Under the pieces are notes generated by a model. That model made no database searches, was not told the origin of the DNA, and saw only the letters and a list, made by a program, of their open reading frames with translations. A stretch of DNA of 64,000 bases from contig NZ_CP022253.1 in assembly GCF_003119195.2 (NCBI RefSeq), positions 700,001 through 764,000 of the forward strand, given 5' to 3'. Positions 20,196 through 59,765 of the stretch are shown piece by piece. Each line of letters begins with the position of its first letter. The first letter of the stretch is position 1. The stretch is from Azospirillum baldaniorum (GTDB taxonomy: Bacteria > Pseudomonadota > Alphaproteobacteria > Azospirillales > Azospirillaceae). Made by a program: the position numbers and the translations under genes.

Positions 20196-20825
20196 ATGTC
20201 CACCTCGGTCGCCCAGGCTTTCGTCAAGCAGTTCGAACGCGAAGTGCACGACGCCTACCAGCGCATGGGCTCCAAGCTGCGCAACACGGTGCGCACCAAG
20301 AACAACGTCCAGGGCGCCTCCACCGTCTTCCAGAAGGTCGGCAAGGGCACCGCGTCGACCAAGGCGCGCCACGGCGCGGTTCCGGTGATGAACCTGGACC
20401 ACACGCCGGTCGAATGCACCCTCTACGACTTCTACGCCGGCGACTGGGTCGATCGGCTGGACGAGCTGAAGACCAACATCGACGAGCGGCAGATCATCGC
20501 CAGCGCCGGCGCCTACGCGCTGGGCCGCAAGACCGATGAACTCATCCTGGGTGAGTTGAACCGCTCCACCAACTACGCGGGTGCGTCCAGCGACGGGCTG
20601 ACCAAGGCGAAGGTGTTGACGGCCTTCGAGAAGCTGGGCGAGTCCGACGTGCCGGACGACGGCCAGCGCTACGCCGTCGTCGGCTGGAAGCAGTGGAGCC
20701 AGCTTCTGGGCATCGACGAGTTCGCCAGCACCGAATATGTCGGCGCCGACGAGCTGCCCTGGCGCGGCACCCAGGCCAAGCGCTGGCTGGGCACGCTGTG
20801 GATGCCCTACTGCGGCGCCTATTGA
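20196..20825 (+). pseudogene. Outer-prophage major capsid gene, 5' part (interrupted by inner prophage)
   Basis: Codons 1-204 of a capsid protein of the Phage_capsid_2 type, starting MSTSVAQAFVKQFEREVHDA. The ATG at 20196 follows GAAAGGA. The frame runs into the attachment core (encoding G-T-L-W-M-P), then five prophage-derived residues (Y-C-G-A-Y) and a stop. The missing 68 codons are found in frame after the right core, ending ...VVTMRCLEA. Removing 20,808-59,558 gives an intact 272-codon gene. As it stands the product is C-terminally truncated and presumably cannot form capsids. Confidence 0.9.
20789..20807. other. attL core of inner prophage
   Basis: The 19-bp direct repeat GGGCACGCTGTGGATGCCC, identical to the copy at 59540-59558. 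Flanking bases differ on both sides (T versus C before, T versus C after), so this is the exact extent of identity. The integrase stop is 61 bases away. Confidence 0.92.
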
Positions 20826-20851
20826 TTTTATTGGGAAATTTCCGCGTGTAG

Positions 20852-20867
20852 CTGTGATGCGTCACAG
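20852..20867. repeat. Palindrome in left prophage arm
   Basis: CTGTGATGCGTCACAG directly after the integrase stop. It is nearly identical to the palindrome at 59451-59468 in the other arm. Possible arm-type site for integrase or excisionase, or a regulator site. Confidence 0.6.
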
Positions 20868-21917
20868 TCACGCGCGATCCAGCGCCCGCCGCGCCCGATC
20901 CAGATGATCCGGCGCGAGGTGTCCATAGGTGGACTGCACCTGCTTGATTGAGGCGTGCCCGAGCCACCGGGCGACATCGTACAGCGGCACGCCTGCCTGA
21001 ACCATCCACGACGCGGCGGTGTGCCGAAGCGTGTGAGGGGTCACCTTGTCGTCCAGCCCGGCGCGCAGCCGGGCCAGCTTCCAGCCCTTCCGAATATCCG
21101 CCACCGGGCCGCCCTGGTAGGTGATGACGTACCCGGTGTCGCTGCCGCGCTTGCGCGCCAACCGCAGGAAGGTCATCAGCCGCCGCGGGATCGGGATCAC
21201 CGCCCGGCCTTTGCTCGTCCGCTCGCGCCCCGGCGGGTTGAAGTCGATCACCCCGCGGGCAAGGTCCACCTGGGGCCAGCGAAGGGACAGGATGGCCTCT
21301 TTCCGCGCCCCGGTGTACAGCCCAATCATGATGAACAGCGGGAGATGCAGCCGGCCCCATTCGCTGGCCCGCGCGCCCATCAGCAGCGCCGCGACTTCGC
21401 CGCGCTCCAGCCACCGTGTGCGCGGCTCCGGACGATCCGGCGTCCACACGTGAACCAGGGCCGAAAGCCGCTGCGCCTCCCAGTCCCGACGAACGGCAGC
21501 CTTCAGAACGATCAGCTCGTTCCCCCACGTCCCCTTGGTGACGCCGCGCCGATCCTTCCCGCTCTCCCGCCATGCGCCATAGGCCCGGCAGGCTCGTTCC
21601 GTGATGTCGGCGACTGCCCGGTCTCCCCACCACTCCGACAGCCGCTCGACCGCGTGCAGGATGCTGGGCGGGTACGCTGCAGCGGGAGCCCGCTCGCCGG
21701 CATAGTCCGCCAACACGTCGTCTATTTTCCGGGAAGCGGGATCACTCGGCCCGAGATGCGATCCGGAGATGAAGCGCGCAAGTTCGCCTTCAGCTCGGCG
21801 ACGGTCGTCAGTGCCCGTGGCACGGACCCGCGCCTTTCCGTTTTCGAACCAGCGGACGTACCAGCCCTTGCGCCTTTCATCCCAGTGGAGGTGAGGGCCT
21901 TTGTTGCGTCTCGGCAT
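20868..21917 (-). CDS. int: Tyrosine-recombinase integrase
   Basis: A 349-residue phage integrase. The catalytic residues are visible: Arg205 (GLYTGARKEAIL), His295 and Arg298 (HTLRHTAASW), His321 (WLGHASIKQV) and nucleophile Tyr331 (STYGHL). The N-terminal AP2-like arm-binding region (WDERRKGWYVRWFENGKARV) is followed by a SAM-like core-binding domain. It is transcribed toward attL and expected to join attP with the attB inside the outer phage's capsid gene. Confidence 0.95.
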   Translation of the reverse strand: MPRRNKGPHLHWDERRKGWYVRWFENGKARVRATGTDDRRRAEGELARFISGSHLGPSDPASRKIDDVLADYAGERAPAAAYPPSILHAVERLSEWWGDRAVADITERACRAYGAWRESGKDRRGVTKGTWGNELIVLKAAVRRDWEAQRLSALVHVWTPDRPEPRTRWLERGEVAALLMGARASEWGRLHLPLFIMIGLYTGARKEAILSLRWPQVDLARGVIDFNPPGRERTSKGRAVIPIPRRLMTFLRLARKRGSDTGYVITYQGGPVADIRKGWKLARLRAGLDDKVTPHTLRHTAASWMVQAGVPLYDVARWLGHASIKQVQSTYGHLAPDHLDRARRALDRA

Positions 21918-22111
21918 GTGCGGCGTTCCGTCAGATAGGCGCGGACATCATCGGGGGCGATCAGGTAGCGGCCAGCGACCAGCGTGGCATGAAGCCGCCC
22001 GGCCTTGCACTCGTCCTGCACGAAGCGTGATGAGCATCGGAGGACGGCGGCAACCTCAAGAGGGGTCGCGAGGTCCGGTAGGTCTGTGATTTTGGTGGCG
22101 TTTTCCGACAT
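21722..22111 (-). CDS. Excisionase-like HTH DNA-binding protein
   Basis: A 129-residue protein starting MSENATKITDLPDLATPLEV. The middle (EVAAVLRCSSRFVQDECKAGRL-HATLVAGRYLIAPDDVRAYL) is a MerR/excisionase-type winged helix (HTH_17 pattern: xVAxxL-x-x-R...G-x-L-x...G-x-x-x-I-x-x-x-D-V). Its 3' part overlaps the integrase start by about 195 bases in another frame, an unusually large overlap. Likely controls excision direction (inference from position and fold). Confidence 0.7.
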   Translation of the reverse strand: MSENATKITDLPDLATPLEVAAVLRCSSRFVQDECKAGRLHATLVAGRYLIAPDDVRAYLTERRTCRDATKALTSTGMKGARAGTSAGSKTERRGSVPRALTTVAELKANLRASSPDRISGRVIPLPGK

Positions 22112-22212
22112 GTTGTGTCTCACCAATGTTTGCCACCGGCAAGTGTGGGGCGATGGTATTGGGATTAAATTCACAAGTCAAGGGCCGTGTAGCGCAACCT
22201 CTGCGCCCATGC

Positions 22213-22518
22213 CTACACCTCTCCCTGCGCTGCGCGGTGATGGGAGAGGGCGGCGCGCACCGGATCAGCAATCCAGCCCCCGATGCGCTCCGCCGGCTCT
22301 GCGGGGATGACGAAATCGCAGTCGCCACACGCGCAGAACTCGGCGCCCCGGCAATGGCGGCAGACCTTGGCGTACCGGATGCCTGACCAGCCGTCCGCTG
22401 GAAGCGCGCGAAACGTCACGGCGAGATAGCGGTCTCCGGCGCTGATGGTGTGTCCGCAGAGGTAGCAGTGGTGGTCCTGCCGGGCGACGTGCTCGGCTTG
22501 CTTGATGGGCTTAGCCAT
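22213..22518 (-). CDS. Cys-rich putative zinc-binding protein
   Basis: A 101-residue protein with two C-x2-C pairs, HHCYLCGHTISAGDRY near residue 17 and KVCRHCRGAEFCACGDC near residue 52. These could bind one or two zinc ions. It is part of the leftward early operon of the inner prophage. Function unknown. Confidence 0.7.
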   Translation of the reverse strand: MAKPIKQAEHVARQDHHCYLCGHTISAGDRYLAVTFRALPADGWSGIRYAKVCRHCRGAEFCACGDCDFVIPAEPAERIGGWIADPVRAALSHHRAAQGEV

Positions 22519-22525
22519 TGCTCAC

Positions 22526-23204: not shown

Positions 23205-23257
23205 GGTGTCGTTCTCCTGTGCGCGCTCAGCGCTGCGCGGGGGTGGGGATGTGGGGG

Positions 23258-24338: not shown

Positions 24339-24700
24339 AGCCCCTGCGCCTTCTTCGCGAGGTAGCGCTTCCAAGCCGGGGAGGCGGAGGCGAACTCTCG
24401 GGCCAGCTTCAGCATGTCGATGCCGTGCCGACGCTGGAACTCCAGTTCCCCGACGTTGTGCTGCTGACGGTGGTGTTCAGTGCACAGGCTGATGGCCCGG
24501 TCGTCCGAAGGCTTCATCCCCATGCCGCCGTCGCCGTGGGTGCGGACGTGGGCGGCTTCGATGGGGCGGCCCTGGCAGCCGGGGACGCAGCAACCGTGCT
24601 GGCGGACGAAGGCGAGGTGGCCGGGGCAGCGGTCGCGCTGGGGGCGGCCAGTGTCAGCCTTGCGCTTCGGGAGGCGGGCGGGGAGTGCCATGGCCGTCAC
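24335..24700 (-). CDS. HNH-like nuclease (DUF968-type)
   Basis: A 121-residue protein with CCVPGCQGRPIEAAHVRTHG near residue 37, then GMGMKPSDDRAISLCTEHHRQQHN. The paired cysteines, H-V-R and C-x2-HH are the zinc and active-site pattern of HNH-like phage nucleases. It probably acts in recombination or DNA processing with the neighbouring annealing protein. Translation likely starts at GTG 24700 (GTGA overlap); an in-frame ATG lies at 24691. Confidence 0.78.
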   Translation of the reverse strand: MTAMALPARLPKRKADTGRPQRDRCPGHLAFVRQHGCCVPGCQGRPIEAAHVRTHGDGGMGMKPSDDRAISLCTEHHRQQHNVGELEFQRRHGIDMLKLAREFASASPAWKRYLAKKAQGL

Positions 24701-25695
24701 TCCGCCGCCTGTGACGGGACGCCCTGGAAGACGGAGCGCTTCTTGGCGGCCCTGTCCTTCAGGAATTCGAACGCGCCCTTGTCGGCAGCTTTCAGCCCAT
24801 CAAAAGCCGCCTTGTTGGCCTTCAGCGTTTCGTTCAGCAGATCGAGAGTGGGGGCGCCGTCGATGGCCTTGCTCATCAGGAAGCGCCACCTCTCCCAGTC
24901 GGTGCCGGCGTCGTTGGCGAGCATGGGAACGGGGATCAGGAGCGGGATGTCAGGAGGGTTGTTGTCCTGGCCCGCCGCTTCGCCTTCGCCACGCAGGACA
25001 GCCTCCTTCTTGGCACCGAACATGTTGTAGATGCGGCGCTGCGCCTCCTTGTCGACCGTCCCGATTTCCCGTAGTCGTGATCCAACAGCAGTGCGCCACA
25101 GCTCTTCCATGTCGTCCAGGTCCAGGCAGGCGTCGAGGCGCTTCTTGACATCGGCCTCGAAGGCGGCGATGGCGGCCGGCTGAAGCTCCGGGTTGGACTT
25201 GGCCGCGAAGTACGCCTCGGACTCCTCCCGGTACTTGCTGTCATCGAACTGGCCCATGTAGATGTCCGCGGCCAAGCCGAGCTGAAGTAGGCACTTGCCC
25301 AGTGCGTCGGTGATCGACATCTTCAGGCACTCGTCGGTCGGCTTCGGTTTTCCACCGCGTTCCGGCATCATCTCGGTGCCGCCCCACTGAGGGCCGGTCC
25401 AGCGAGCATTGGCAGGATATGTCTCCCGCCAGCCTTCAGGCCACACCGCGGCGTCTGCGCCGGCCGGCACGTACCAGACGCGGACCTTGCTGAACGCCAT
25501 GTCGTGGCTGATCTTCAGGTCGTCTTCGACGTACCCCCACCCTTGTCCGACCGGGCCGAAAACCTCGGTCATCAGTTGAAGGCGATAGGTCGGGTCGATC
25601 TGCGTTCCCTTGAAGCCGCCGGACTTCTGGAAAGGCTTTGTCGCCTTCGGGTCTGTCCGTTCCAGCTTCTTCCAGATGGTGAGGTTGTCGGTCAT
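24697..25695 (-). CDS. Putative single-strand annealing recombinase (Rad52-like)
   Basis: A 332-residue protein starting MTDNLTIWKKLERTDPKATK. The block KPFQKSGGFKGTQIDPTYRL, the GPVGQGWGYVE strand and ITDALGKCLLQLGLAADIYMGQFDDSKY are the pattern seen in phage Rad52/Sak-like annealing proteins. A helical tail follows. It is expected to anneal single-stranded phage DNA during replication or circularisation. The fold assignment is by motif, not by structure. The start overlaps the previous gene's stop. Confidence 0.65.
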   Translation of the reverse strand: MTDNLTIWKKLERTDPKATKPFQKSGGFKGTQIDPTYRLQLMTEVFGPVGQGWGYVEDDLKISHDMAFSKVRVWYVPAGADAAVWPEGWRETYPANARWTGPQWGGTEMMPERGGKPKPTDECLKMSITDALGKCLLQLGLAADIYMGQFDDSKYREESEAYFAAKSNPELQPAAIAAFEADVKKRLDACLDLDDMEELWRTAVGSRLREIGTVDKEAQRRIYNMFGAKKEAVLRGEGEAAGQDNNPPDIPLLIPVPMLANDAGTDWERWRFLMSKAIDGAPTLDLLNETLKANKAAFDGLKAADKGAFEFLKDRAAKKRSVFQGVPSQAAE

Positions 25696-47985: not shown

Positions 47986-47995
47986 GGATGACGAC

Positions 47996-50095
47996 ATGAC
48001 CATCTGGACCAACGATCTGAGCGGCACCGTCAACCGCGTCGGGCCCGATGTGAGCGATGCGAAGGTGATCCCCACCGGGGAGGGCGACCCCCGGTGGCTG
48101 TCCGACGTCGCGGCGGATGTGGGCAACCTTTCCACCGACAAGCTGGACAAGGACGGCGACGGCTCCGACGTCACGGCCGAAGCGGCGGGCGGCACCGCGC
48201 CCCAAAGGCTGTCCGCCAAGCTCGGGGAGCGGCTGAGCGTGTTCGATATCGCGGGCGTGGTCGCCGATGGCGTGCACGACGACAGCGCGGCGCTTTCGCT
48301 CTACCTCGCGACGACGCTGCGCAAGCCCGGGCCGATCTACGTTCCGGAGTCTGCCAAGGTCAATTTGGGTTCGTCCGTCACGTTCCCTCCGGGTTGGACG
48401 CTGATTGGCCCTGGCGGTCATGGCAAGGTGAGCAACGCTCGCACAGACAGTTTCTATAACCTGGGCGGACAGGTGAAGCTGGCATCAACCGCCTCACTGC
48501 GCCTTATCAATCGCAACGGTCTGGTTGGCCTGCTGATTATCCAGGCCGGGCTTTCCCTTCCTGTGGCGAACTACGCCGCTGCCATGGCCTTCAAAGCTGC
48601 GTGCGCCGGTACTGCCGTGATCTGTGCCGATGCGACAGCGGAGGTGTCCGATTGCGATATCGTCATCGCCGATTGCATGTTCATTGGCTTCAATCTGGCG
48701 ATCAGCGGCACCGCGGACCGCATGACGTTGAAGGATCTCAAGGTGGACAGCAAGAGCGGTATTTTGCTGTCCGGTCAGGTCGATATCTCGCGCCTGCGCA
48801 CGCTTCACGTCTGGCCGTTCGTCACGGTCGAGGCAGCCGATGGGCTGACGCTGGAGCAGATCAACGACGTTCTGACGCGCGACGGATACGGTTTCCGCTT
48901 CGATGATGTGGCGGCGCCGGGGGGCGGCAACGATTGGACGGACGCGCTCGGCCTGTTCACCTACGGGCACAATCCGGGCTACCAGTTTCACAACGTATCC
49001 GGCCTGACGCTCGCCTTTGCAAAGGCCGATTACAAGAACCCGCTCGGCGCCGACGTGCGGGGCTTCGACTTCACCGGTCACTGTGACGTGACGCTGGTCA
49101 GTCCCACCGCCGTTGCCCAACAGACAGGGGTCCGTATCGAGACAACGAGCGGGCTGGTCAAGATCCTCTCCGGTTCCTTCGCCTCGGTGGTGGACAACAT
49201 CGACCGGGTGACCGGGCACGTCATGGCGCTTGGCAACAGCTTCCATTCGGGCTCCGGCGTCGGCGTCCGGCTGCGCAACTGCACCCACACCGCCAATGTC
49301 GCCTTCAATTTCGGCGAGAACATTGGCGCTCTGCTTTACGTCGATCCGGCGCTACCGACCTCGCGGGTCACCACCTACGGCAACGTCGGCCCGGTCGCCT
49401 CGACCGAGGACAACCGCACCGTCGGCGCCCTGCGCCTGTTCACCCCCGGCAACATCGCCGAGGGCATCGGCGCCGGCGTGCGCTTCCGGGGGCCGGTCTT
49501 CTCCGGCGAGATGTCCTACGGTTCGGTGCGCCCTTACCTGAAAAGCGCCACCACCGGTTCCGAGGCCGTGTCCCTGCGCTTTGCCTCGGTGTCCGGCGGA
49601 ACCGAGACCGACCGTTGGGAGCTGGCCTACGACGGGCACCTGTTGCCGCTTCAGGACAACGCCTACAGCCTGGGCAGCGACACCTACCGCATTTCCAAGG
49701 TAGCCGCCGCGCTGGTGTCTACTTCAAATCTTGCGTACAGCGGATTGGTGAAGGTCACGGCAAATGCGCAAGTGGACAGCGGGACCGCGGTCACGCTTGC
49801 CGGCGTCAACGCCATTCAGCGTGTTCGCCTGACGGGGAATGCGACGATCACCTTGCCAACCCTTACCCTGTCGGGGAGCGAGCGCTGTGAACTCTTGGTG
49901 GAGCTGGTGCAGGACGGAACGGGCAACCGGACCGTGACTTGGGCCACGCAAGGCAGCGACACCATTGATTGGGACGGGTCTTCGGTGGCTCCGTCCATCG
50001 CCACAACCGCCGGCTATGAAACGAAGATCGTCTTCATGAGGCGGGCAGGGTCTACGGTCTGGCAGGCCGCTAAAGTCTGGCAGAAGGGGGCGTGA
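47996..50095 (+). CDS. Tailspike with pectate-lyase-type beta-helix
   Basis: A 699-residue receptor-binding protein. The N-terminal virion-binding region ends in LSVFDIAGVVADGVHDDSAA, the pectate-lyase superfamily entry motif. A parallel beta-helix follows for about 350 residues. The C-terminal region carries LPLQDNAYSLGSDTYRISKV, a fibre-type attachment domain. Expected to bind or degrade host surface polysaccharide. Confidence 0.85.
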   Translation: MTIWTNDLSGTVNRVGPDVSDAKVIPTGEGDPRWLSDVAADVGNLSTDKLDKDGDGSDVTAEAAGGTAPQRLSAKLGERLSVFDIAGVVADGVHDDSAALSLYLATTLRKPGPIYVPESAKVNLGSSVTFPPGWTLIGPGGHGKVSNARTDSFYNLGGQVKLASTASLRLINRNGLVGLLIIQAGLSLPVANYAAAMAFKAACAGTAVICADATAEVSDCDIVIADCMFIGFNLAISGTADRMTLKDLKVDSKSGILLSGQVDISRLRTLHVWPFVTVEAADGLTLEQINDVLTRDGYGFRFDDVAAPGGGNDWTDALGLFTYGHNPGYQFHNVSGLTLAFAKADYKNPLGADVRGFDFTGHCDVTLVSPTAVAQQTGVRIETTSGLVKILSGSFASVVDNIDRVTGHVMALGNSFHSGSGVGVRLRNCTHTANVAFNFGENIGALLYVDPALPTSRVTTYGNVGPVASTEDNRTVGALRLFTPGNIAEGIGAGVRFRGPVFSGEMSYGSVRPYLKSATTGSEAVSLRFASVSGGTETDRWELAYDGHLLPLQDNAYSLGSDTYRISKVAAALVSTSNLAYSGLVKVTANAQVDSGTAVTLAGVNAIQRVRLTGNATITLPTLTLSGSERCELLVELVQDGTGNRTVTWATQGSDTIDWDGSSVAPSIATTAGYETKIVFMRRAGSTVWQAAKVWQKGA

Positions 50096-50096
50096 C

Positions 50097-51038
50097 ATGC
50101 GCGCATCCTCCATCATGCGCTCCCCGCGCCCGGACACGAATTTGCAGTTCCTGTCCGGGCTGCTCGATCCGCGGGTATCGGCGTGGACGCGGAGCGGCGT
50201 GAGCAGCCGATGGGACGCCGCCGGGGCTCTCCAGGCGCCGGGGGACAACGTCGCGCGGTTCGATTACGATCCGCTCACGCTGGCCCCCAAGGGCCTCATG
50301 TTCGAGGAGGCCCGCGCGAACCTGATCGCCTCTCCGGACACGCCGGCCACGCAGTCCGTCAGCGTCACAGCGCAAGCCTATACGCTGTCCTTCTACGGCT
50401 CGGGCACGGTGACGCTGAGCGGCGCGGCGACGGCCACCGTAGCCGGGACCGGCGCCGTTCCGAACCGGCGCGCCTACACCTTCACCCCATCCGCCGGCAC
50501 GCTGACGCTGACGGTCAGCGGCACCGTCCGGTATGCCAACCTGGAGGCGGGGGCCTACGCGACAAGTTACATCCCCGGCGCATCCCGCGGGGCCGACACG
50601 GGCATCATTCTGGCGGCCTCGACACTGCCGGGCCTGTCCGTCTCGCAGGGCACGCTTTTCATCGAGTGGCAGTTTCCCGGCATCCTGCCTCCCGGTCAGG
50701 CGGCCATTGTCGGGTTCGATGACGGGACGGGGGCCAATCGCATCCTGCTCCGGGTCGGGCAGGGGGGTGTCGCTGACATGGTGTCCAGCCCCGGCGGCAT
50801 CGACACCACAGGCATAGCGGTCACGGCAGGCACCATCATCCGGCAGGCGGTGGCGTGGTCCTCGGGAAGCTGGGCGCACTGCGCGGGCGGTCAGATTGAG
50901 ACGAGTTCGGTCACGACCATGCCGGCAACCTTCACCCGGCTTAACCTGGGCGGCGGCTCCGGATCGTTCTGGCTCCGCAAGGTCCGGCATTACGCGCTCC
51001 GCCTTCCCGACAACACGCTGAAGACGATGACGACGTAA
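50097..51038 (+). CDS. Phage virion protein with lectin-like domain
   Basis: A 313-residue protein. RFDYDPLTLAPKGLMFEEAR followed by ANLI is a typical head-spike-fibre motif, and the C-terminal part (GTLFIEWQFPGILPPGQAAI) suggests a concanavalin-like fold. Probably a surface fibre or decoration. Confidence 0.75.
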   Translation: MRASSIMRSPRPDTNLQFLSGLLDPRVSAWTRSGVSSRWDAAGALQAPGDNVARFDYDPLTLAPKGLMFEEARANLIASPDTPATQSVSVTAQAYTLSFYGSGTVTLSGAATATVAGTGAVPNRRAYTFTPSAGTLTLTVSGTVRYANLEAGAYATSYIPGASRGADTGIILAASTLPGLSVSQGTLFIEWQFPGILPPGQAAIVGFDDGTGANRILLRVGQGGVADMVSSPGGIDTTGIAVTAGTIIRQAVAWSSGSWAHCAGGQIETSSVTTMPATFTRLNLGGGSGSFWLRKVRHYALRLPDNTLKTMTT

Positions 51039-51047
51039 GGGGCCGAT

Positions 51048-52502
51048 ATGGCATCGCTTCTTTCCATCAGGGCTGGCGACCAAGTCGCAAGCGGCCTCTA
51101 TACCGCCACCAACCCCCTTGACGCGCCCCTGTGGGTGGACGGGCGCAATGTTCTGTTCCGCGACGGCGGCGTGGAGAAGGCCCCCGGCTTCGTCTCCCTT
51201 CTGACGGTGACCGACGCCGGCACGTTGCGCGGCATGGACGCCATGACCGACACGGCGCTGATCCAGCGTCTGTTCCTGGGCGACGCGGGCAAACTCTACC
51301 AGTGGGCCGCCGGCACTCTGACCACGGTCGGCACCGGCTATACCGGGTCTGTCGATGAGGGGGGATCAGCACCGGCTTCCTGCTGGAGTTTCGCCCCCTA
51401 TGGCGACTGGATGCTGGGGACCAACGGCAAGGACCCCGTTCAGGTCTGGAAGAAGACGGTCGGGACCTTCGCCGCGCTCGATGTCGACGGTCAGTTCACA
51501 GCGGCGCAGATCCTGCTGCGCCGGGGTCCCCATCTTCTGGCCTTCGGCTCGGCCGGCGGGGCGGCAGGGGCTGCGGGGGCGTACCACTGGTGCAGCGCCG
51601 ACGACCCGGAGAACTGGGACCCCGACGCGACCGACAGCGCGGGCTTCCAGCCGATCGCGGAGTTGCAGGGGCCGATTGTCGCCGCGGTGCCTCTGGGGGA
51701 CATGATCGCGGTTCTCGGCCGCAATCAGCTGTTCCTGATCCGCTACACCGGGGCGCCCTTCTACTTCCCCTACCAGCCGGCTCTGACCGGCGTGGGGGCG
51801 GTGGGCAAGCGGGCGGTGGTCGAGGCCAACCGGCGGCTCTACGGCATGAGCCGGGCGGGCTTCTGGATGGCGGACGGGACTCAGTACAGCTATATCGACA
51901 CCCCGGCGCTGCGGGATTACCTGCTGCCCCGCCTGAACACGGCGCAGCTGTCCAAGGCGGTGTGCTGGTACGACCAAACCAACCAGCTCGTGTTGTGGTC
52001 GGTCCCGACCACCGGGGTGGAACCGGACGTGACGGTTGGGTTCCATGTCGCATCGGGCGTCTGGACCATCTTCGATTGGGCACGCGCGGCTGCGGTGCCG
52101 CAGCTCGGCGTGTTCCGCCAGCCCTATACCGCCGGGTCGGGCGGTAAGGTCTATGCGCACAACAGCGGCGTGGATGCGGGGGCGGGCGTCGGCATGACGG
52201 CCTATGTCCAGTCCAAGCCGCTAGACTGCGGCGACGCGGGCGTGTGGAAGGCCATCAACGAGGTGCGCGCGCGCCTCCGGCGGATGGCCGGCGCCGTCAA
52301 CCTCCTGATCGGCACGCAGCGCAACAGCGACGATCCGGTGATGTGGCTCCCGGCCAAGGTGCTGGACGACGGCAACGAAAGCCTCTGGCTGCGGGCCAGC
52401 GGGCGATACCTGACGCTCCGGATTGAGAGCACGGCGGTCGGTGCCGATTGGGCGCTGACCGGCTTCGATCTGCTGGGCGTCCCCGCGGGAGAACGGCGAT
52501 GA
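51048..52502 (+). CDS. Tail protein, beta-propeller type
   Basis: A 484-residue protein starting MASLLSIRAGDQVASGLYTA. Repeats of beta strands with GxxF and W motifs (VDGRNVLFRDGGVEKAPGFV) and VCWYDQTNQLVLWSVPTTGV resemble podoviral tail-tube/stopper proteins. Its stop overlaps the next gene (ATGA). Confidence 0.72.
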   Translation: MASLLSIRAGDQVASGLYTATNPLDAPLWVDGRNVLFRDGGVEKAPGFVSLLTVTDAGTLRGMDAMTDTALIQRLFLGDAGKLYQWAAGTLTTVGTGYTGSVDEGGSAPASCWSFAPYGDWMLGTNGKDPVQVWKKTVGTFAALDVDGQFTAAQILLRRGPHLLAFGSAGGAAGAAGAYHWCSADDPENWDPDATDSAGFQPIAELQGPIVAAVPLGDMIAVLGRNQLFLIRYTGAPFYFPYQPALTGVGAVGKRAVVEANRRLYGMSRAGFWMADGTQYSYIDTPALRDYLLPRLNTAQLSKAVCWYDQTNQLVLWSVPTTGVEPDVTVGFHVASGVWTIFDWARAAAVPQLGVFRQPYTAGSGGKVYAHNSGVDAGAGVGMTAYVQSKPLDCGDAGVWKAINEVRARLRRMAGAVNLLIGTQRNSDDPVMWLPAKVLDDGNESLWLRASGRYLTLRIESTAVGADWALTGFDLLGVPAGERR

Positions 52503-53735: not shown

Positions 53736-54644
53736 ATGGGCCTGTTCGACAGCCAGACCACGGTGAGCGGCAGCCCCGATTGGGCCACCGACTATCAGAA
53801 GCAGAACCTCAACATTGCCGGTCAGGTCGCGGCGCAGCCCTACCAGCAGTATGGCGGGGACCGGGTGGCGCAGAACCCCATGCTTCCCGGCCTCCTGCAA
53901 TGGTCTCAGGGGATGATCGGCACCGCGGCCAACACGCCGGGCGGCTACAACACCGCGGCGGGGGTGGCCGGCTACAGGCCGGAGACGTTGGCCGGGAAGG
54001 ACCTGTCCGCCTACATGAACCCGTTCACCCAGAATGTGGTGGACGCATCGGCGAACGAGATGCGTCGGCAGGCCGCCATGACGGATCAGCAGATCGGCGG
54101 GCAGGCCGGGCAGGCGGGGGCCTACGGCGGCGCCCGGCACGCGCTCCTCCAAGCGGAGAACACGCGCAACCTGAACGACCAGATCGGCAACATGGTGGCC
54201 GGCCTGAACCTGCAGAACTTCTCCAACGCCCAGAACCAAGCCGTCGGTGACATCAGCCGCGGTATGCAGGGTCAGGCGCTCAACCTGCAGGCCGCCGGCC
54301 AGATGGACCAGTCGGCGGCGGCGGATCAGGCCCGGCTGACCAGCGCGCTTGGGCTGTCGAACCAGCTCGGCCAGCAGCAGCAGCAGTACATGCAGGGCCT
54401 TTACGACACGAATTACCAGAACTGGCAGGACCAGCAGAACTATCCGCTCAAGCAGCTGCAGACGCGCATAGGGGCGCTGAACGGCAACATCCCATCGCAG
54501 CAAACCTATTTCTCGAACAGCGCCGCGAACGCTATTGGCCTTGGCCTTGGTGGCGCGAAGCTCGTTTCTGCGCTCGGTGGCATTGGCGGCATCAAAGACG
54601 GGATCAATTCCGGAATTGACGCCATTTCTGGTTTGCTCGGCTAA
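53736..54644 (+). CDS. Virion-internal/ejection protein, Gln-rich
   Basis: A 302-residue protein starting MGLFDSQTTVSGSPDWATDY. Rich in Gln/Asn/Ala with repeated helix units (QGQALNLQAAGQMDQSAAAD) and a Gly-rich hydrophobic C-terminus. Such proteins precede the transglycosylase in Bcep22/N4-type virions and are thought to be ejected with DNA. Confidence 0.7.
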   Translation: MGLFDSQTTVSGSPDWATDYQKQNLNIAGQVAAQPYQQYGGDRVAQNPMLPGLLQWSQGMIGTAANTPGGYNTAAGVAGYRPETLAGKDLSAYMNPFTQNVVDASANEMRRQAAMTDQQIGGQAGQAGAYGGARHALLQAENTRNLNDQIGNMVAGLNLQNFSNAQNQAVGDISRGMQGQALNLQAAGQMDQSAAADQARLTSALGLSNQLGQQQQQYMQGLYDTNYQNWQDQQNYPLKQLQTRIGALNGNIPSQQTYFSNSAANAIGLGLGGAKLVSALGGIGGIKDGINSGIDAISGLLG

Positions 54645-54654
54645 GGAGATTGCC

Positions 54655-56436
54655 ATGTCCATTTTTGGGATTTTCGGTGATCCGGACACGGGCAACACCT
54701 CGCCCCTGCTCGGCGGATCGCTGCCTGACCCGTCCTCCTACGCCCTGGACGGCGGATTGCAGGCAATCGCCCCCCTCATGGGGCCGCAGCGCGCCCCGGT
54801 TGGAATTGGGCAGTTCGTCGCGGCGCTCGCGGGCGGGATGGGCGCCGGGCGGCGCGTGGGTGAACAGGATCGCCTGCGCCAACTCCTGTCCGCGTATCAG
54901 CTCCAGAAGAACGCCCGTGATGAACGCAAGGCCGCCGCCGCCGACGCGCAGGTGGAGACTGCGGCGAAGGATCTGGAGGGGCAGGGAAAAGCGCAGGAGG
55001 CTGCTTGGTTGCGGGCCGGCGGCGTGTCGGCGTTCAACGAGTTGATGAAGTCCCGGCTGAACAGCGACTGGATGCCGCTTGGGGGCGGAGCCTTCCCCGG
55101 CGCTCCGGGCCCGGTCGGCGGCGCCCAGTCCAGTGGCGGAACGGCGACGCAGCCGCGGGCGCCTCAGGTTCCTGCGGTGTTCCAGGATCTCCTGGCGCAG
55201 CACGCCGACCGCGCCAATCTCTCGCCGCAGCTTGTCGGATCCGTGCTGATGGCCGAGAGCGGCGGCGACCCGAATGCGGTGTCCGGGAAGGGTGCGCGGG
55301 GGCTGATGCAGATCATGCCCGGCACGGCCCGTGATCCGGGCTTCGGCGTCCAGCCGGCCCGCGATGCTTCCCCGGAGGAGAACATCCGCGTCGGCGTGGA
55401 CTACCTCGCGGCGCTCAAGAAGAAGTATGGCGGGGACGAGCGGCTGGCCTTGGCCGCCTACAACTGGGGGCATGCGAACGTGGACAACTGGCTGTCCGCC
55501 GGCGCCGACCCCGCCAAGCTCCCGGCGGAAACCCGTGCCTATGTGGAGAAGGTGCTTGGCCCCGCCGCCGCGCCGGTTCAGGTGGCGGACGCCAGCGGCG
55601 ACGGGTGGCGGCAGGTCTTCCACAAGGGCAGCGGGAAAATTTTCGAGATCAGCCCGGACGGCAAGAAGATGCGGGAGGCGCGCGACCCGCGGGCCGGTCT
55701 GTTCTCCGGAACTTCGGTTGAAGGACAGGCGCTGAACCAGCTGGTACAGAGCGGCCTTCTGTCCAAGGAGCAGGCGCTCGCTTGGGCGGCCGGGAAGACC
55801 GTGACCGGGCCGAACGGGCAACTCGACTTCATCACCCCGCAGTCGGCCCCGCGCGCCGATGCCAGCAATCCGTCGGGCGCCACCTCAACGCCCTCCGGGA
55901 CTGCCCCCGCCATGACGACCGTCCGACCTGGGCAGCTCGCGCCGCAGGACAAGGAGGCCATTATGGAGGCGGACAAGGCTGCGGAAGCGGCTGATGGAGC
56001 AATCCGAGCCCTCAACGATGCCCTGGCGCTGAACAGGAAGGCATGGGGCGGGGCCATGGCTCCCGTGGCCCAAACTCTGGGGCGCACCGGCGTGGTTTTC
56101 CAGGAGGGCGGTCCAGCAACGACGGAGCTGGAGAACATCATCGGGACCCAAGCCCTTGGTCAGCTGAAGGCAATCTTCGGCGCGGCGCCGACCGAAGGCG
56201 AGCGGAAGATCCTCATGGATCTTCAAGGCTCCATCACCAAGTCCGCAGACGAACGCGAAGTAATCTTCAAGCGCTCGCTCGACGCGGCGCAAAAGCGGCT
56301 GGAGCGCGAGCGGGCACGGGCGCAGGCGCTGCGCAGCGGCACCTATTACACCGAAGGCATGCCTCAGCAGGCCGCCCCCCAGGCGGCCTCGGCGCGGGTC
56401 CTTCGTTTTGACGCACAGGGGAACCCGATCCAATGA
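54655..56436 (+). CDS. Ejection protein with lytic transglycosylase domain
   Basis: A 593-residue protein. The SLT domain near residues 180-285 shows the catalytic glutamate in VGSVLMAESGGDPNAVSGKG, then ARGLMQIMPGTARDPGFGVQ and LALAAYNWGHANVDNWLSAG. It would cut murein during DNA entry. The long helical C-terminus (EADKAAEAADGAIRALNDAL) suits a trans-envelope conduit. The start at 54655 follows AAGGAG. Confidence 0.88.
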   Translation: MSIFGIFGDPDTGNTSPLLGGSLPDPSSYALDGGLQAIAPLMGPQRAPVGIGQFVAALAGGMGAGRRVGEQDRLRQLLSAYQLQKNARDERKAAAADAQVETAAKDLEGQGKAQEAAWLRAGGVSAFNELMKSRLNSDWMPLGGGAFPGAPGPVGGAQSSGGTATQPRAPQVPAVFQDLLAQHADRANLSPQLVGSVLMAESGGDPNAVSGKGARGLMQIMPGTARDPGFGVQPARDASPEENIRVGVDYLAALKKKYGGDERLALAAYNWGHANVDNWLSAGADPAKLPAETRAYVEKVLGPAAAPVQVADASGDGWRQVFHKGSGKIFEISPDGKKMREARDPRAGLFSGTSVEGQALNQLVQSGLLSKEQALAWAAGKTVTGPNGQLDFITPQSAPRADASNPSGATSTPSGTAPAMTTVRPGQLAPQDKEAIMEADKAAEAADGAIRALNDALALNRKAWGGAMAPVAQTLGRTGVVFQEGGPATTELENIIGTQALGQLKAIFGAAPTEGERKILMDLQGSITKSADEREVIFKRSLDAAQKRLERERARAQALRSGTYYTEGMPQQAAPQAASARVLRFDAQGNPIQ

Positions 56437-58238
56437 CCGTGCGCGCTGAACTGCATGACGGCACCGTTCTGGAGTTTCCGGACGGCACGTCGGACGAGGT
56501 GGTGTCGAACACCGTGAAGCGCCTGATAGGCGTCCAGCCGGCCACGCCCCAGCCCCCGGAGCGCAGCTTTGGGGAGGAGGCGTTGCGGAAGGCCGAGTTT
56601 GCCAGCCGTGGCGTCTCGGACAGCGTCTTGGAGACCATCGGCGCGATCCCGGATGCCATCTGGAGCGGCGCCCGTGCGCTCGGGCTACCGGCCCCGGAAG
56701 GGAAGGCCGCGGACACCCTGAAACAGGGGTGGAATGCCGTTGGCCGGACCCTCTCCGCCCCCCTCAACGCAGCCTTCCCCGGCGTGATGGATGGGCCGAA
56801 GACGACGGGCGACAAGCTCGTCTATGGGGCTGGGCGGGGCGTCGGCGATGCGCTCACCGTCATGGCCCCGGCGGCAGGGGCTGCCAAGGTCGCGCAGGCT
56901 GGCGGCCTCACGCGTGGCGTGGCGGAGGTCCTGGCCGCTCAGCCTGTCGTGCAGGCGGCTGCGGGCGCTGCCGGCGGTGGTGTCGGCGAGGCGACGGACA
57001 GTCCCTTGATGGGCATCCTCGCCTCACTGGCCGTGCCTGCGTCGATGGCCGGGGCGAGCCGCGTCGTGTCGCCCGTCCGGAACCAGCTCAACCCCGAGCA
57101 GGCCCGTTTGGCGGCGGCGGCGGCCCGCGAAGGCATTGAGTTGACCCCGGCGCAGGCCACCGGCAGCAAGCCGCTTCAGGCGATGGAAGCGGTCATGGGC
57201 ACGCTTCCCATGACCAGCGGCCCGCAACGCGCCCTGGAGGCGACGCAGCGGGAGGCGTTCAACCGCGCGGTTCTGTCGCGGGCGGGCGTCCAGGCTGACC
57301 GGGCGAGCCCGGAGGTGCTGGACGATGCGTTCCGCGTCCTGGGGCGGCAGTTCGACGACTTGGCCCGCCGCACCACGGTCCAGGTGGACGACAAGCTGTT
57401 CAAGGAGGTGGACGCCGTGGCGAGCGAGTATGGGCGGCGCCTGCCGACCGACGTCGCCCCGGTCTTCCAGAGTTACGTGGACGACCTGAACGTTATGAGG
57501 TCGGCTATGGCCCCGCCGCCACCCGCCGGCTCCGGCGCCGCGGGCTCAGTGGTCCCGGCGTCCCAGACATCGACCGTCCAGATCCCCGGCGAAGCGTTCC
57601 AGAACATCGTGTCCGGGCTGCGCGCCCGCGCCCGGTCGGCGCAGAACAACCCGGCCCTGCAAACCGCGCTCGACCGGCTGGCCGATGCGGTCGACCGGAC
57701 GATGGTGCGCAGCGCCACGCCGGAGGTGGCGAGCGCTTGGCGGCAGGCGCGCCGGAACTATCGCAACCTGCTGACCATCGACAAGGCGATGGCCGGCGGC
57801 ACGCAGGCCGATCGGGCGGCGGGCGACATTGCGTTCGGCGCGTTTCGGCAGGCCGTGCGTCAGTCCGACCCCCGCGGGTTTGCGCGAGGGCGTGGGGAGA
57901 TGAACGAGCTGGCGCGCATTGGCGACTTTCTCGGGGCCGCGCGCATCCCGACCAGCGGAACGTCCGAGCGCAACACGATGACCAACCTGCTCACTGGAGG
58001 CGGGCTGGGGGCGACCGGTGGCGCGTTGGCCGGTGGCGCTGATCCGCTGCTTTCCCTGGCCGTGGCTGGTGGCGCCACGGTTCTCCCCCGCGCCCTCCAG
58101 ATGGCCTACAACAGCCCCGCCGGCCGGGCGTGGCTGACGAACCAGCTTGCCGCCGGAGCCGCTCCCGCACCCGGCTTGCTGGGGGCCGTGGCGCTGGGGC
58201 GCGAGAAGGACATTCGCGGGCTGCTCGGCGGACCTTAA
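56433..58238 (+). CDS. Large Ala-rich ejection protein
   Basis: A 601-residue protein starting MTVRAELHDGTVLEFPDGTS. It has hydrophobic Gly/Ala stretches (VMAPAAGAAKVAQAGGLTRG; VQAAAGAAGGGVGEATDSPL) and ARLAAAAAREGIELTPAQAT. Probably the membrane-penetrating internal protein. Overlaps the previous stop (ATGA). Confidence 0.75.
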   Translation: MTVRAELHDGTVLEFPDGTSDEVVSNTVKRLIGVQPATPQPPERSFGEEALRKAEFASRGVSDSVLETIGAIPDAIWSGARALGLPAPEGKAADTLKQGWNAVGRTLSAPLNAAFPGVMDGPKTTGDKLVYGAGRGVGDALTVMAPAAGAAKVAQAGGLTRGVAEVLAAQPVVQAAAGAAGGGVGEATDSPLMGILASLAVPASMAGASRVVSPVRNQLNPEQARLAAAAAREGIELTPAQATGSKPLQAMEAVMGTLPMTSGPQRALEATQREAFNRAVLSRAGVQADRASPEVLDDAFRVLGRQFDDLARRTTVQVDDKLFKEVDAVASEYGRRLPTDVAPVFQSYVDDLNVMRSAMAPPPPAGSGAAGSVVPASQTSTVQIPGEAFQNIVSGLRARARSAQNNPALQTALDRLADAVDRTMVRSATPEVASAWRQARRNYRNLLTIDKAMAGGTQADRAAGDIAFGAFRQAVRQSDPRGFARGRGEMNELARIGDFLGAARIPTSGTSERNTMTNLLTGGGLGATGGALAGGADPLLSLAVAGGATVLPRALQMAYNSPAGRAWLTNQLAAGAAPAPGLLGAVALGREKDIRGLLGGP

Positions 58239-58578: not shown

Positions 58579-58598
58579 CATGCCCGCGAGGAGGCATC

Positions 58599-59084
58599 AT
58601 GAGCACCTTCGACAAGGCCCTTGCCTTCGTCCTGGAGAAGGAAGGCGGGCCGACGATCACCGACGACCCGCGCGACCCCGGCGGCCTGACCCGCTGGGGC
58701 GTCTCCAAGCGCGCCTACCCGGACCTGGACATCCGCAACCTGACCCGCGAGCAGGCGGCGGCGATCTACCGCCGGGACTATTGGGACCGGGCCGGCTGCG
58801 GCAACCTGCCGGCGGGCGTCGGCGTCATGCACTTCGACACCGCCGTGAACCAGGGGGCGGGCACCGCCGCGAAGTTCCTGCAGCTCGCCGCGGGCGTCGA
58901 GGCGGACGGCAAGATCGGACCGAAGACGCTCGCCGCCGTGCAGCGCGCCCGGCCCGCCGATCTGCTGGTGGAGTATGCCGCCCGCCGCGCCGACCACTAT
59001 GGGCGGCTGCCGCACTTCCCGACCTACGGCCTGGGCTGGTCCCGCCGGCTGGCCGCCTGCCTCGCCCTGGCCATCACCGCCTGA
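58599..59084 (+). CDS. GH108-type endolysin
   Basis: A 161-residue peptidoglycan hydrolase starting MSTFDKALAFVLEKEGGPTI. The EKEGG motif holds the expected catalytic glutamate (Glu15), and PRDPGGLTRWGVSKRAYPDL and FDTAVNQGAGTAAKFLQLAA match the family. GAGGAGG precedes the ATG. It would lyse the cell with a holin partner. Confidence 0.9.
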   Translation: MSTFDKALAFVLEKEGGPTITDDPRDPGGLTRWGVSKRAYPDLDIRNLTREQAAAIYRRDYWDRAGCGNLPAGVGVMHFDTAVNQGAGTAAKFLQLAAGVEADGKIGPKTLAAVQRARPADLLVEYAARRADHYGRLPHFPTYGLGWSRRLAACLALAITA

Positions 59085-59226
59085 CGAGCAGGATGCAACC
59101 GCTGATATGCGATCCGTTTTGGCGGAAACTCGGAGGAAATCGGGAGCGGTGACCAATTAAAACAGTGGCTTACACCCAGATTTAAGAGGTGAATCATCCC
59201 GCAAGGAACTCAGCACCACAAGTTGC

Positions 59227-59256
59227 GCCGCCCGGCATCCCGCCCGGCGGCTTTTT
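59227..59256 (+). terminator. Terminator after the endolysin
   Basis: GCCGCC-c-GG ... CC-c-GGCGGC stem (59227-59251), followed by TTTTT at 59252-59256. Ends about 22 bases before the next small gene. Confidence 0.75.
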
Positions 59257-59277
59257 GCTGCCTGAAAGGAGGCACCC

Positions 59278-59400
59278 ATGCCCATCGCCCACCGAAAGAA
59301 GCTCGCCCTCGTCGCGTTCGCCGTCGCCGCCGGCGCGGTCGACTACTTCGCCGGGACCAACTTCCTCCCCATGGCGCTCCAGGCTCTCATGGGGATGTGA
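59278..59400 (+). CDS. 40-residue membrane peptide, last gene of inner prophage
   Basis: Reads MPIAHRKKLALVAFAVAAGA then VDYFAGTNFLPMALQALMGM. One strong membrane helix, positive N-terminus. A very good ribosome binding site (GAAAGGAGG) supports translation. It lies beside the endolysin, so a holin or antiholin role is possible. Confidence 0.6.
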   Translation: MPIAHRKKLALVAFAVAAGAVDYFAGTNFLPMALQALMGM

Positions 59401-59450
59401 GGGCAGGGGCGCCCCGCGCCCCGCTACCCCCGCTCCGCTGTCCAAGTATA

Positions 59451-59468
59451 ACTGTGACGCGTCACAGT
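59451..59468. repeat. Palindrome in right prophage arm
   Basis: ACTGTGACGCGTCACAGT, an exact 18-bp palindrome. It matches 20852-20867 in the other arm except for one base. It is 71 bases from the right core. Confidence 0.7.
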
Positions 59469-59539
59469 ATCAGGCCGCATTTGGCGCGCGACTCGGCAAC
59501 GCAAGCGGAACACAGCCTATAAAAAACAATCACTTAGGC

Positions 59540-59558
59540 GGGCACGCTGTGGATGCCC
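59540..59558. other. attR core of inner prophage
   Basis: The second copy of the 19-bp core. It keeps the capsid frame (GGC ACG CTG TGG ATG CCC), which passes directly into the capsid's C-terminal codons. Confidence 0.92.
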
Positions 59559-59765
59559 CATTCGGGCCTGAAGGCGGAGGGAGGCGTTCGGCTGTGCCAC
59601 TGGTACCACAAGACGGCCATCGGCCACGCCTCCGGTTCCGACGTGAAGACGGACATCTCGTGGCACGGCGATCGGGCCGCGCATTTCGTGAACAACATGA
59701 TGTCGCAGGGCGCCGGCCTGATCGACGCGGCGGGCGTCGTCACCATGCGCTGCCTGGAAGCCTGA
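59559..59765 (+). pseudogene. Outer-prophage major capsid gene, 3' part
   Basis: Codons 205-272 of the capsid protein, reading HSGLKAEGGVRLCHWYHKTA through SDISWHGD-like KTDISWHGDRAAHFVNNMMS to VVTMRCLEA and stop. It has no start or ribosome site of its own; the ATG inside the core (59553) is incidental. Joined to 20196-20807 it restores the gene exactly. Confidence 0.9.

What the first reader, a model, noticed from the sequence alone, without database searches (positions are those of the whole stretch)
20196..59765. A prophage integrated in frame inside the capsid gene of another prophage
The capsid gene of the outer phage is cut at codon 204. The remaining 68 codons resume 38,751 bp later. 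The 19-bp core is present at both ends and keeps the reading frame, so excision would restore a 272-codon capsid exactly. The inner phage's attB is thus a phage structural gene. While lysogenic it disables virion production of its host prophage; on excision it would re-arm it. This could be superinfection interference, or a reversible switch like active lysogeny.
Basis: partly seen in the sequence, partly recalled or inferred. Interest (0 to 1): 0.95.

Follow-up and report, generated by a model that had tools for sequence, protein, structure and literature searches.

The report
Mobile elements disarm a domesticated virus
In this Azospirillum genome a 38.8-kb prophage sits in frame inside the capsid gene of an older virus-derived gene cluster whose capsid gene occurs in all 45 genomes examined of the genus; other mobile elements have cut the capsid or portal gene of the same cluster in eight more genomes of the order, which likely switches off particles that are predicted to carry bacterial genes between cells.

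Summary
Observation confirmed. The capsid gene starting at 20196 is cut at codon 204; its last 68 codons resume 38,751 bp later behind an exact 19-bp repeat, and uninterrupted relatives carry the core inside the whole gene. The insert looks like a complete temperate podophage.

The "outer prophage" is not a prophage. It is a compact podoviral cluster (portal, scaffold, capsid, tail, spike, terminase, lysis) in which no integrase or replication gene was recognised. Its capsid gene is in 45 of 45 Azospirillum genomes and 68 of 82 of the order; terL lies by host pyrD in 44 of 45. It evolves in step with pyrD: domesticated, likely a gene transfer agent (GTA).

The hit recurs. In 82 genomes of the order, elements with att repeats split its capsid gene in 4 of 68 (three phages, two of them related; one restriction-modification island) and its portal gene in 5 of 67 (15-17 kb capsid-bearing satellites, one core). 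No such element splits ttpB, terL or pyrD. Integrases are mostly distant.

Closest precedents: helper-embedded PICIs, and mobile elements that break competence genes. GTA function, excision and benefit to the elements are untested.

The parts
12090..12722 (-). HTH + Peptidase_S24 (LexA/CI-type) repressor next to the portal end of the cluster; candidate regulator of the cluster
   Evidence: Pfam PF00717 9e-24; homologue upstream of the portal in relatives; regulatory role inferred
14209..15726 (+). Portal (head-tail connector) of the domesticated podoviral cluster; split by satellites in 5 other genomes
   Evidence: PF12236 3e-147, phrog_332; splits
15719..15991 (+). Bbp19-like small phage protein
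   Evidence: PF25181
16017..16718 (+). Scaffold (T7 capsid assembly protein)
   Evidence: PF05396 1e-10
16896..19280 (+). Host-type GGDEF-EAL gene lying inside the cluster
   Evidence: Pfam; same place in the brasilense-type relatives
19338..19775 (-). PRC-barrel gene inside the cluster
   Evidence: PF05239
20196..20807 (+). Major capsid gene of the cluster, codons 1-204 (ORF runs on to 20825, product 209 aa)
   Evidence: phrog_3437 positions 3-221, PF19821
20789..20807 (+). Left att core (19 bp)
20868..21917 (-). Tyrosine integrase of the inner prophage
   Evidence: phrog_1 3e-52, PF00589
21722..22111 (-). ORF with HTH_17 domain next to the integrase; candidate excisionase
   Evidence: PF12728 6e-8; role inferred
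24697..25695 (-). Phage exonuclease
   Evidence: phrog_7838 3e-40
35787..36566 (+). Replication initiation (O-like)
   Evidence: phrog_1032 4e-13
40325..41632 (+). Terminase large subunit of the inner phage
   Evidence: phrog_3717 2e-60
41632..43755 (+). Portal of the inner phage
   Evidence: phrog_1216 5e-170
44674..45783 (+). Scaffold of the inner phage
   Evidence: phrog_3927
45784..46737 (+). Major capsid of the inner phage (different family from the interrupted one)
   Evidence: phrog_1328 7e-93
47368..52502 (+). Virion and tail genes of the inner phage (47996-50095 within this stretch has no family match)
   Evidence: phrog_2941, phrog_5939, phrog_3287
53736..58238 (+). DNA ejection proteins and lytic transglycosylase of the inner phage
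   Evidence: phrog_4287, phrog_26400; phrog_2013
58599..59084 (+). Endolysin of the inner phage
   Evidence: phrog_315 1e-48
59540..59558 (+). Right att core (19 bp)
59559..59765 (+). Major capsid gene of the cluster, last 68 codons and stop
   Evidence: phrog_3437 positions 228-293
59804..60073 (+). Small conserved gene after the capsid gene; its homologue in G043 is split by a serine-integrase element
   Evidence: phrog_18004
60251..60820 (+). Tail tubular protein A
   Evidence: phrog_394
60820..62715 (+). Tail tubular protein B (ttpB)
   Evidence: phrog_376 2e-145
62715..63380 (+). Conserved cluster gene, possibly an internal virion protein
   Evidence: position and conservation; no phrog match; function inferred
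63421..64000 (+). Tail spike (named from position and sequence look, not searched), runs past the window; terL (phrog_38), a small membrane-type ORF and a cell-wall hydrolase follow, then pyrD

Best explanation
A prophage with podoviral head and tail genes lies between two copies of a 19-bp core inside the major capsid gene of a podovirus-derived gene cluster that likely is a domesticated gene transfer agent, and this cut is predicted to stop that cluster's particle production until the prophage excises. The cluster keeps head, tail, terminase and lysis genes beside an S24-type repressor, shows no recognisable integrase or replication gene, and keeps its place beside pyrD across the genus (shown). 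Phages, capsid-bearing satellites and a restriction-modification island, most of them with distant integrases, have integrated at four sites in its two head genes, capsid and portal (shown). Each leaves the gene truncated, and core repeats would let excision restore it (repeats shown, excision inferred). I infer that these sites are favoured because breaking a head gene removes a suicidal, lysis-linked DNA-transfer programme that kills the element's host cell or lets neighbours cure it, while the gene is dispensable for growth and present in nearly all strains.
For: Anatomy. Uninterrupted relatives with the core. Domestication: capsid gene in 45 of 45 genus genomes, one close copy each; conserved order in most of 40 loci; terL confirmed as terminase, phrog_38 4e-71; pairwise dN of nine cluster genes against pyrD r = 0.92-0.98 and median dN/dS 0.17-0.41 against 0.32 for pyrD (16-40 loci per gene); pyrD within 5 kb of terL in 44 of 45 genus genomes and 17 of 23 others of the order (counted by eye); pyrD also follows the cluster in G096 of another order. 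Recurrence in the order, 82 genomes: capsid split by elements with att repeats in 4 of 68, portal in 5 of 67; ttpB 0 of 67, terL 0 of 69, pyrD 0 of 82. Convergence: eight integrases at the cluster are 22-38% identical where they align (the window and A. picis pair 40%, 44% over 228 aa); the A. picis prophage and the Skermanella island share an 11-bp core with different integrases; the portal satellites carry two unrelated head modules. Printed lead: A. lipoferum and B510 release particles with about 10 kb DNA judged 'rather' GTA, genes unidentified (PMC3899980, passages). An S24 repressor beside the cluster would fit DNA-damage control.
Against: No particle, packaged DNA or excised junction was observed; GTA function is inference. 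The same paper reports 62-65 kb phages, not 10-kb particles, from A. brasilense strains, and no lysis of A. brasilense CBG497 with mitomycin C; the window is of the brasilense type, so the printed lead does not cover it. Purifying selection alone would not separate a GTA from other uses, and pyrD is linked to the cluster, so its distance correlation is not an independent species tree. Outside the order the hits are rare: 1 of 54 closer capsid homologues (G096; counted by eye) and no clear portal case. The five portal cases share one att core; counted as element lineages the excess of head genes over ttpB and terL is modest (0.404 to the power 5 = 0.011 by hand, fraction). IMG/VR also shows an element in ttpB and one between ttpB and the next gene, and G043 has one in the gene after the capsid. 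The window core is not in an unusually conserved stretch (36th percentile) and is exact in only 2 of 30 capsid genes compared. A dispensable, widely shared gene could be a safe att site without any benefit from breaking it.
Confidence: 0.65

Rival explanations
1. Safe-harbour attB: the capsid and portal genes are merely widely shared, dispensable, rarely expressed genes; integrases evolve to use them because insertion costs the host nothing, and loss of the particles has no benefit to the element.
For: The gene is in 45 of 45 genus genomes with one close copy and insertion leaves a viable host. The 11-bp capsid core is exact in 24 of 30 capsid genes and the portal core in 30 of 43 and 16 of 16 intact portal genes compared, so the sites are often available. 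The window core is not in the most conserved part of the gene.
Against: Two longer genes of the same cluster, ttpB and terL, have no such insertion in 67 and 69 genomes while capsid and portal have 9, although these are five element lineages. The window attP brings no replacement end, unlike the usual rule for gene targets described in PMC10111431.
Confidence: 0.3
2. The outer element is an ordinary, perhaps still active podophage prophage and the inner phage is a superinfection competitor or regulator.
For: Full set of virion genes, and excision would restore the reading frame.
Against: No integrase or replication gene recognised in the cluster; 45 of 45 presence, place beside pyrD, host GGDEF gene inside the cluster, portal module at a different place in many species.
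Confidence: 0.04
3. Helper-embedded satellite logic: the guests use the cluster as a helper, drawing tails or late transcription from it, and excision re-arms it at the right moment, as in HE-PICIs.
For: [quoted passage not shown] the late genes of the window, G024 and G025 phages are co-oriented with the capsid gene.
Against: The window phage has its own terminase, portal, capsid and tail genes and needs no such helper; no sign that a podoviral tail fits HK97-type satellite heads; the L097 prophage has its integrase at the opposite end.
Confidence: 0.2
4. Decay: the cluster is dying in these lineages and insertions mark relaxed selection.
For: G006 has a deletion, G043 several frameshifts, G053 a stop and a frame change.
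Against: Open frames in most genomes, pairwise dN/dS well below 1, and ttpB and terL are open in G000, G024, G025 and G081.
Confidence: 0.1

Closest known systems
Helper-embedded PICIs (Tommasini et al. 2023, PMC10111431; abstract, passages and Discussion read)
   Same: An integrative element sits in a late gene of a phage-type element, the capsid and portal genes among the sites; no replacement end in attP; excision restores the gene ('regulated gene integrity').
   Different: Those guests are satellites of one integrase clade in lambda-like helper prophages of enterobacteria. Here the window guest is a full phage, the guests are of several kinds with mostly distant integrases, and the target is a vertically kept cluster without a recognised integrase.
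Mobile elements that break competence genes (Croucher et al. 2016, PMC4774983; Mol Biol Evol 2025, PMC12637031; passages read)
   Same: Convergent integration of unrelated elements into a host DNA-transfer machinery, at several sites with divergent integrases; explained there as escape from curing.
   Different: Target here is the head of a GTA-like particle, not DNA uptake. 'Gene transfer agent' does not occur in the 2016 main text; the 2025 Discussion names GTAs in passing among recombination-dependent exchange mechanisms that such an arms race may touch, without a case.
Gene transfer agents, type I (RcGTA) and type II (BaGTA) (PMC9662315, passages)
   Same: Domesticated caudoviricete cluster co-evolving with its hosts.
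   Different: Here capsid PF19821, portal PF12236 and a T7-type scaffold and tail tubes, nearest to HTVC010P-like podoviruses; particle production not shown; Azospirillum does not occur in that paper.
Pelagibacter phages EXVC031P and HTVC010P and Vibrio phages
   Same: Homologous major capsid, 51%, 32% and about 31%.
   Different: Free phages of 31-37 kb; the cluster from portal to hydrolase is about 15 kb without the insert and shows no replication gene.
Capsid-forming PICIs (name recalled; search listing only)
   Same: The portal inserts: integrase, own HK97-type portal, protease-capsid and terminase genes, 15-17 kb.
   Different: They sit in the portal gene of a GTA-like cluster; helper unknown; the G010 element has one weak tail-family hit (1e-4).

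Membership tests
Gene transfer agent (outer cluster) | Conserved in the host lineage and inherited with it | tested here: met
   45 of 45 genus genomes; dN tracks linked pyrD, r 0.92-0.98; pyrD neighbour in 44 of 45 (by eye)
Gene transfer agent (outer cluster) | Virion, packaging and lysis genes but no integration or replication genes in the cluster | tested here: met
   several small genes have no family match
Gene transfer agent (outer cluster) | Makes particles with pieces of host DNA | not testable with these tools
   Only a printed lead on ~10-kb particles of A. lipoferum and B510, genes unidentified (PMC3899980)
RcGTA-like (Rhodogtaviriformidae) | Homologous HK97-type head-tail cluster | tested here: not met
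   Capsid is PF19821, portal PF12236, T7-type scaffold; RcGTA capsid type recalled, no direct comparison made
Ordinary prophage (outer cluster) | Own integrase, att sites and replication module | tested here: not met
   None recognised among the cluster genes; place beside pyrD. att sites of its own were not searched for
Temperate podophage (inner element) | Integrase, att repeats, replication, terminase, portal, capsid, tail, lysis genes | tested here: met
Temperate podophage (inner element) | Excises and forms infectious particles | not testable with these tools
   no reads or cultures
HE-PICI (inner element) | Satellite that depends on a helper for virion genes | tested here: not met
   Has its own terminase, portal, scaffold, capsid and tail genes
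HE-PICI (inner element) | Integrase of the 11capE clade | not tested
   11capE integrase not fetched
Capsid-forming PICI (portal elements) | Integrase, own head and terminase genes, no tail genes | tested here: inconclusive
   Pfam on seven proteins of G010, G041, G037, one without a match; PHROG on ten of G037, G010, G073: nine head or terminase proteins and one weak distal-tail hit in G010; gene lists of five elements. Absence of tail genes rests on gene lists
Capsid-forming PICI (portal elements) | Needs a helper phage for tails | not testable with these tools
   -

The most novel reading that the evidence does not exclude
The cluster is the unidentified gene transfer agent of Azospirillum and founds a podoviral GTA family spread over Alphaproteobacteria, and its head genes are a convergent kill switch: phages, capsid-forming satellites and a restriction-modification island integrate there to stop GTA lysis and transfer in their host, and re-arm it on excision. 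This would be the first concrete case of intragenomic conflict between mobile elements and a GTA.
Probability: 0.38. Interest if true: 0.95.

Novelty: new variant of a known kind. Interest (0 to 1): 0.86.

Why it matters
Why bacteria keep GTAs and whether mobile elements fight them are open questions. A genus-wide podoviral cluster whose two head genes are repeatedly used as integration sites by several kinds of element gives natural knock-outs, and perhaps natural revertants, in many strains. It also offers a candidate for the genes behind the ~10-kb Azospirillum particles reported in print, and makes both questions directly testable by induction and junction PCR.

Tried and rejected
Rejected: (1) outer element as an ordinary prophage: in every genome of the genus examined, beside pyrD, no integration or replication gene recognised. 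(2) A second capsid copy elsewhere: of the two core-like places with 2 mismatches, the one read (L004) lies in a 286-aa non-capsid gene; the other (L003) was not read for genes. (3) 'att sites fall in the most conserved codons': the window core is at the 36th percentile of 19-nt windows, the G024 core at the 77th. (4) G003's 46-kb break of the portal gene: no att repeat or target duplication found, IS-rich, so not counted as site-specific. (5) G422, G050, G052, G018: contig ends, no inference. G112 and G233 portal splits lie on different contigs, no inference. (6) AlphaFold model of the capsid: pLDDT 46, not used. (7) Frequency claims from the IMG/VR hits: that scan required the core, so its extra insertions are listed but not counted.

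Led nowhere or was limited: Boyer et al. 2008 (Azospirillum phages and ~10-kb particles) is not held; cited only through PMC3899980. The tail-spike gene was not scanned across the order. The 7-bp core of G024 and the 2-3-bp core of G043 were read by eye, whose automatic repeat search missed them; the G081 core was read by eye. In one search the capsid C-half query was out of frame; corrected from then on. One search failed by a file error and was redone. One search was rejected for a stop in the frame I gave; I then used the window's own ttpB.
Full report
OBSERVATION. The 19-bp core GGGCACGCTGTGGATGCCC is exact at 20789-20807 and 59540-59558, 38,751 bp apart, and these are the only exact copies in the 7.68-Mb genome. 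The ORF from 20196 covers positions 3-221 of the major head protein family phrog_3437; the piece at 59553-59765 covers 228-293. The left junction adds five residues and a stop, so the product is 209 aa and lacks the last 68.

THE INNER ELEMENT. It has a tyrosine integrase at the left end, an HTH_17 ORF beside it (candidate excisionase, inferred), an exonuclease, an O-like replication protein, terminase, portal, scaffold, capsid, tail, DNA-ejection, transglycosylase and endolysin genes. Its portal is 53% identical over 82% of its length to one of Bradyrhizobium phage ppBeUSDA76-2 and 46% to a Microcystis phage. It looks like a complete temperate podophage; infectivity is untested.

THE OUTER ELEMENT IS NOT A PROPHAGE. 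The capsid N-half is found in 45 of 45 genomes of the genus, one close copy each, at 81-99% identity in the other 44 (G006 and G043 give partial matches; G020 has an extra 24% hit). Contig lengths identify the genus as Azospirillum (compare; one record bears the name Roseomonas genomospecies 6). Around it lies a compact cluster: S24-type repressor, portal, Bbp19-like protein, T7-type scaffold, a GGDEF-EAL and a PRC-barrel gene in this species group, capsid, a small gene, tail tubes A and B, a tail spike (named by look), terminase (phrog_38, 4e-71), a small membrane-type ORF, cell-wall hydrolase, then host pyrD. No integrase or replication gene was recognised in it. The order is kept in most of the 40 relatives read, except that in the lipoferum-like species the portal module is elsewhere in the genome. 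terL and pyrD lie within 5 kb in 44 of 45 genus genomes (in G006 a terL fragment) and in 17 of 23 other genomes of the order (counted by eye, leaving out the weak G057 hit); in G096, of another order, pyrD also follows. Pairwise dN of nine cluster genes correlates with that of pyrD at r = 0.92-0.98, and median dN/dS is 0.17-0.41 against 0.32 for pyrD. pyrD is linked, so this shows a shared history with the host locus, not an independent species tree. Relatives occur widely: at least 600 stretches in IMG/VR (limit reached), 319 of 334 candidate stretches in one-genome-per-species contigs including Skermanella, Niveispirillum, Rhodospira, Terasakiella, Defluviicoccus, Odyssella and Methylocystaceae (best 80 kept), and 90 of 385 genomes drawn evenly from the class. 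Phage records with this capsid are mainly Pelagibacter and Vibrio phages, 51% at best for a complete annotated phage; one unannotated 5-kb record reaches 61%.

Seven of 40 relatives carry the exact core in an uninterrupted capsid gene and the others have 1-5 mismatches, apart from G006 with its deletion. In a second set, of 30 capsid genes, the exact core is in 2, so the site is mostly one of close relatives. Of 12 IMG/VR contigs with the exact core, 11 read through it and one is the same lysogen.

THE HIT RECURS. Scans of 82 genomes of the order with cluster proteins gave: capsid in 68, split by elements with att repeats in 4; portal in 67, split by such elements in 5, plus one IS-rich break without att repeat in G003; ttpB in 67, no such split; terL in 69, no such split; control gene pyrD in 82, no split, two partial matches at contig ends. 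Frameshifts and stops (among them G039, G043, G050, G053, G068), contig ends (G018, G050, G052) and the deletion and rearrangement in G006 were not counted. The four capsid cases are: the window (codon 204, 19-bp core); G024, a 43-kb prophage with tape measure, HK97-type head and terminase genes and a phrog_1 integrase, at codon about 217 with a core of about 7 bp; G025, Azospirillum picis, a 40-kb podophage related to the window's (terminase 85%, capsid 77%; 20 of 64 window genes have a match) at codon about 250 with an 11-bp core; and G081, Skermanella stibiiresistens, an 11.4-kb island with a C5 methyltransferase and an EcoO109I-like enzyme, whose repeat contains the same 11 bp but whose integrase is different. 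Names come from equal contig lengths. The five portal cases (G037, G010, G041, G015, and G073 of another genus) are 15.0-16.9 kb, share the core GCATCTGGCAGGC at codon about 313, and carry an integrase and their own portal, protease-capsid and terminase genes; the heads of G037 and G073 are of one type and that of G010 of another. No tail genes stand out in their gene lists; G010 has one weak distal-tail hit, 1e-4. In G043 an element with a serine-type integrase (phrog_95) splits the gene after the capsid gene. Outside the order G096 has its capsid gene split at the window's own codon with a 14-bp repeat overlapping the window core; its insert runs over a contig gap and its integrase was not found. 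That is 1 of 54 closer capsid homologues (55% identity or more) outside the order (counted by eye). The class scan with the portal gave no further clear case. IMG/VR records show more: breaks at capsid codons about 12 and 31, in ttpB at 286, and between ttpB and the next gene, three of them with a phrog_1 integrase beside them. These came from a core-selected scan and are not counted.

CONVERGENCE AND CHANCE. Eight integrases compared at the cluster, three of them from the IMG/VR records, are 22-38% identical where they align, and several pairs do not align; the window and A. picis pair is 40% and 44% over 228 residues. Capsid and portal make up 40.4% of the length of capsid, portal, ttpB and terL together. 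All nine counted insertions fall in them, but these are five element lineages at four sites: 0.404 to the power 5 is 0.011, and without the window, which was found first, 0.027 (by hand). The preference for head genes is supported, not proven. The window core is not in an unusually conserved stretch.

HOW IT LIKELY WORKS. Shown: insertion truncates the capsid to 204 of its 272 residues plus five new ones, and core repeats flank the element. Inferred: no functional capsid, so no particles; excision by integrase and excisionase restores the gene. Inferred function of the cluster: a GTA. Supporting lead: A. lipoferum and B510 release particles with about 10 kb of DNA, judged to be rather GTA, and the genes were not identified; the same paper names a single phage-related lysozyme gene as the only prophage-related element in the Azospirillum core genome (PMC3899980, passages). 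Against it: in the same passages A. brasilense strains gave 62-65 kb phages and A. brasilense CBG497 did not lyse with mitomycin C. An S24 repressor beside the cluster would fit DNA-damage control. Why elements go there is open: removing a suicidal transfer programme, escape from curing as argued for competence genes (PMC4774983, PMC12637031, passages), use of the cluster as helper as in HE-PICIs (PMC10111431, abstract, passages and Discussion), or a safe harbour.

KNOWN OR NEW. A satellite in a prophage capsid gene is known (HE-PICI), and mobile elements breaking a DNA-transfer system are known (competence); an arms race touching GTAs is named in passing in PMC12637031. I found no paper on elements integrating into GTA genes, on a podoviral GTA in Alphaproteobacteria, or on Azospirillum GTA genes in the listings (titles and abstract starts only, open-licence library), and Azospirillum does not occur in the main texts of PMC9662315 and PMC10783043. 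I file it as a new variant of a known kind.

Noticed in passing
G000:C2:457895-466712 (own genome, outside the window): A second podoviral gene set (ttpB-like 31-32%, portal-like 32%), distinct from the conserved cluster.
   Followed up: no
L093: IMG/VR record hit twice: a phage end fused to the capsid gene at residue ~13, and an integrase element cutting ttpB at residue ~286.
   Followed up: partly
L097 7967-9139: Prophage joined to capsid codon ~31, with its integrase at the right end, opposite to the window, G024 and G025 phages.
   Followed up: partly
L094 5477-9138: Small element with a phrog_1 integrase and a resolvase-like ORF (by look) between ttpB and the next cluster gene.
   Followed up: partly
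window 16896-19775: A GGDEF-EAL gene and a PRC-barrel gene sit between scaffold and capsid in the brasilense-type species; in lipoferum-like species the portal module is at another place.
   Followed up: partly
L056 (G006): Cluster deleted from capsid residue ~122 to terL, with a second terL fragment and pyrD on another contig.
   Followed up: partly
L299-L301 (G003): Portal gene broken by a 46-kb IS-rich region without att repeat, in a strain whose capsid gene is intact.
   Followed up: partly
L294 5984-7970: Restriction-modification pair (C5 methylase, EcoO109I-like enzyme) on the Skermanella island in the capsid gene.
   Followed up: partly
L302 and L306 against L303: Satellites at the same portal core carry two different head modules (phrog_12/10/9 against phrog_21/4523/15), as if heads were swapped behind one integrase type.
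   Followed up: partly
order genomes G058-G064 (one genus, 7 genomes): No capsid, portal, ttpB or terL match although pyrD is present; the cluster seems absent from this genus.
   Followed up: no
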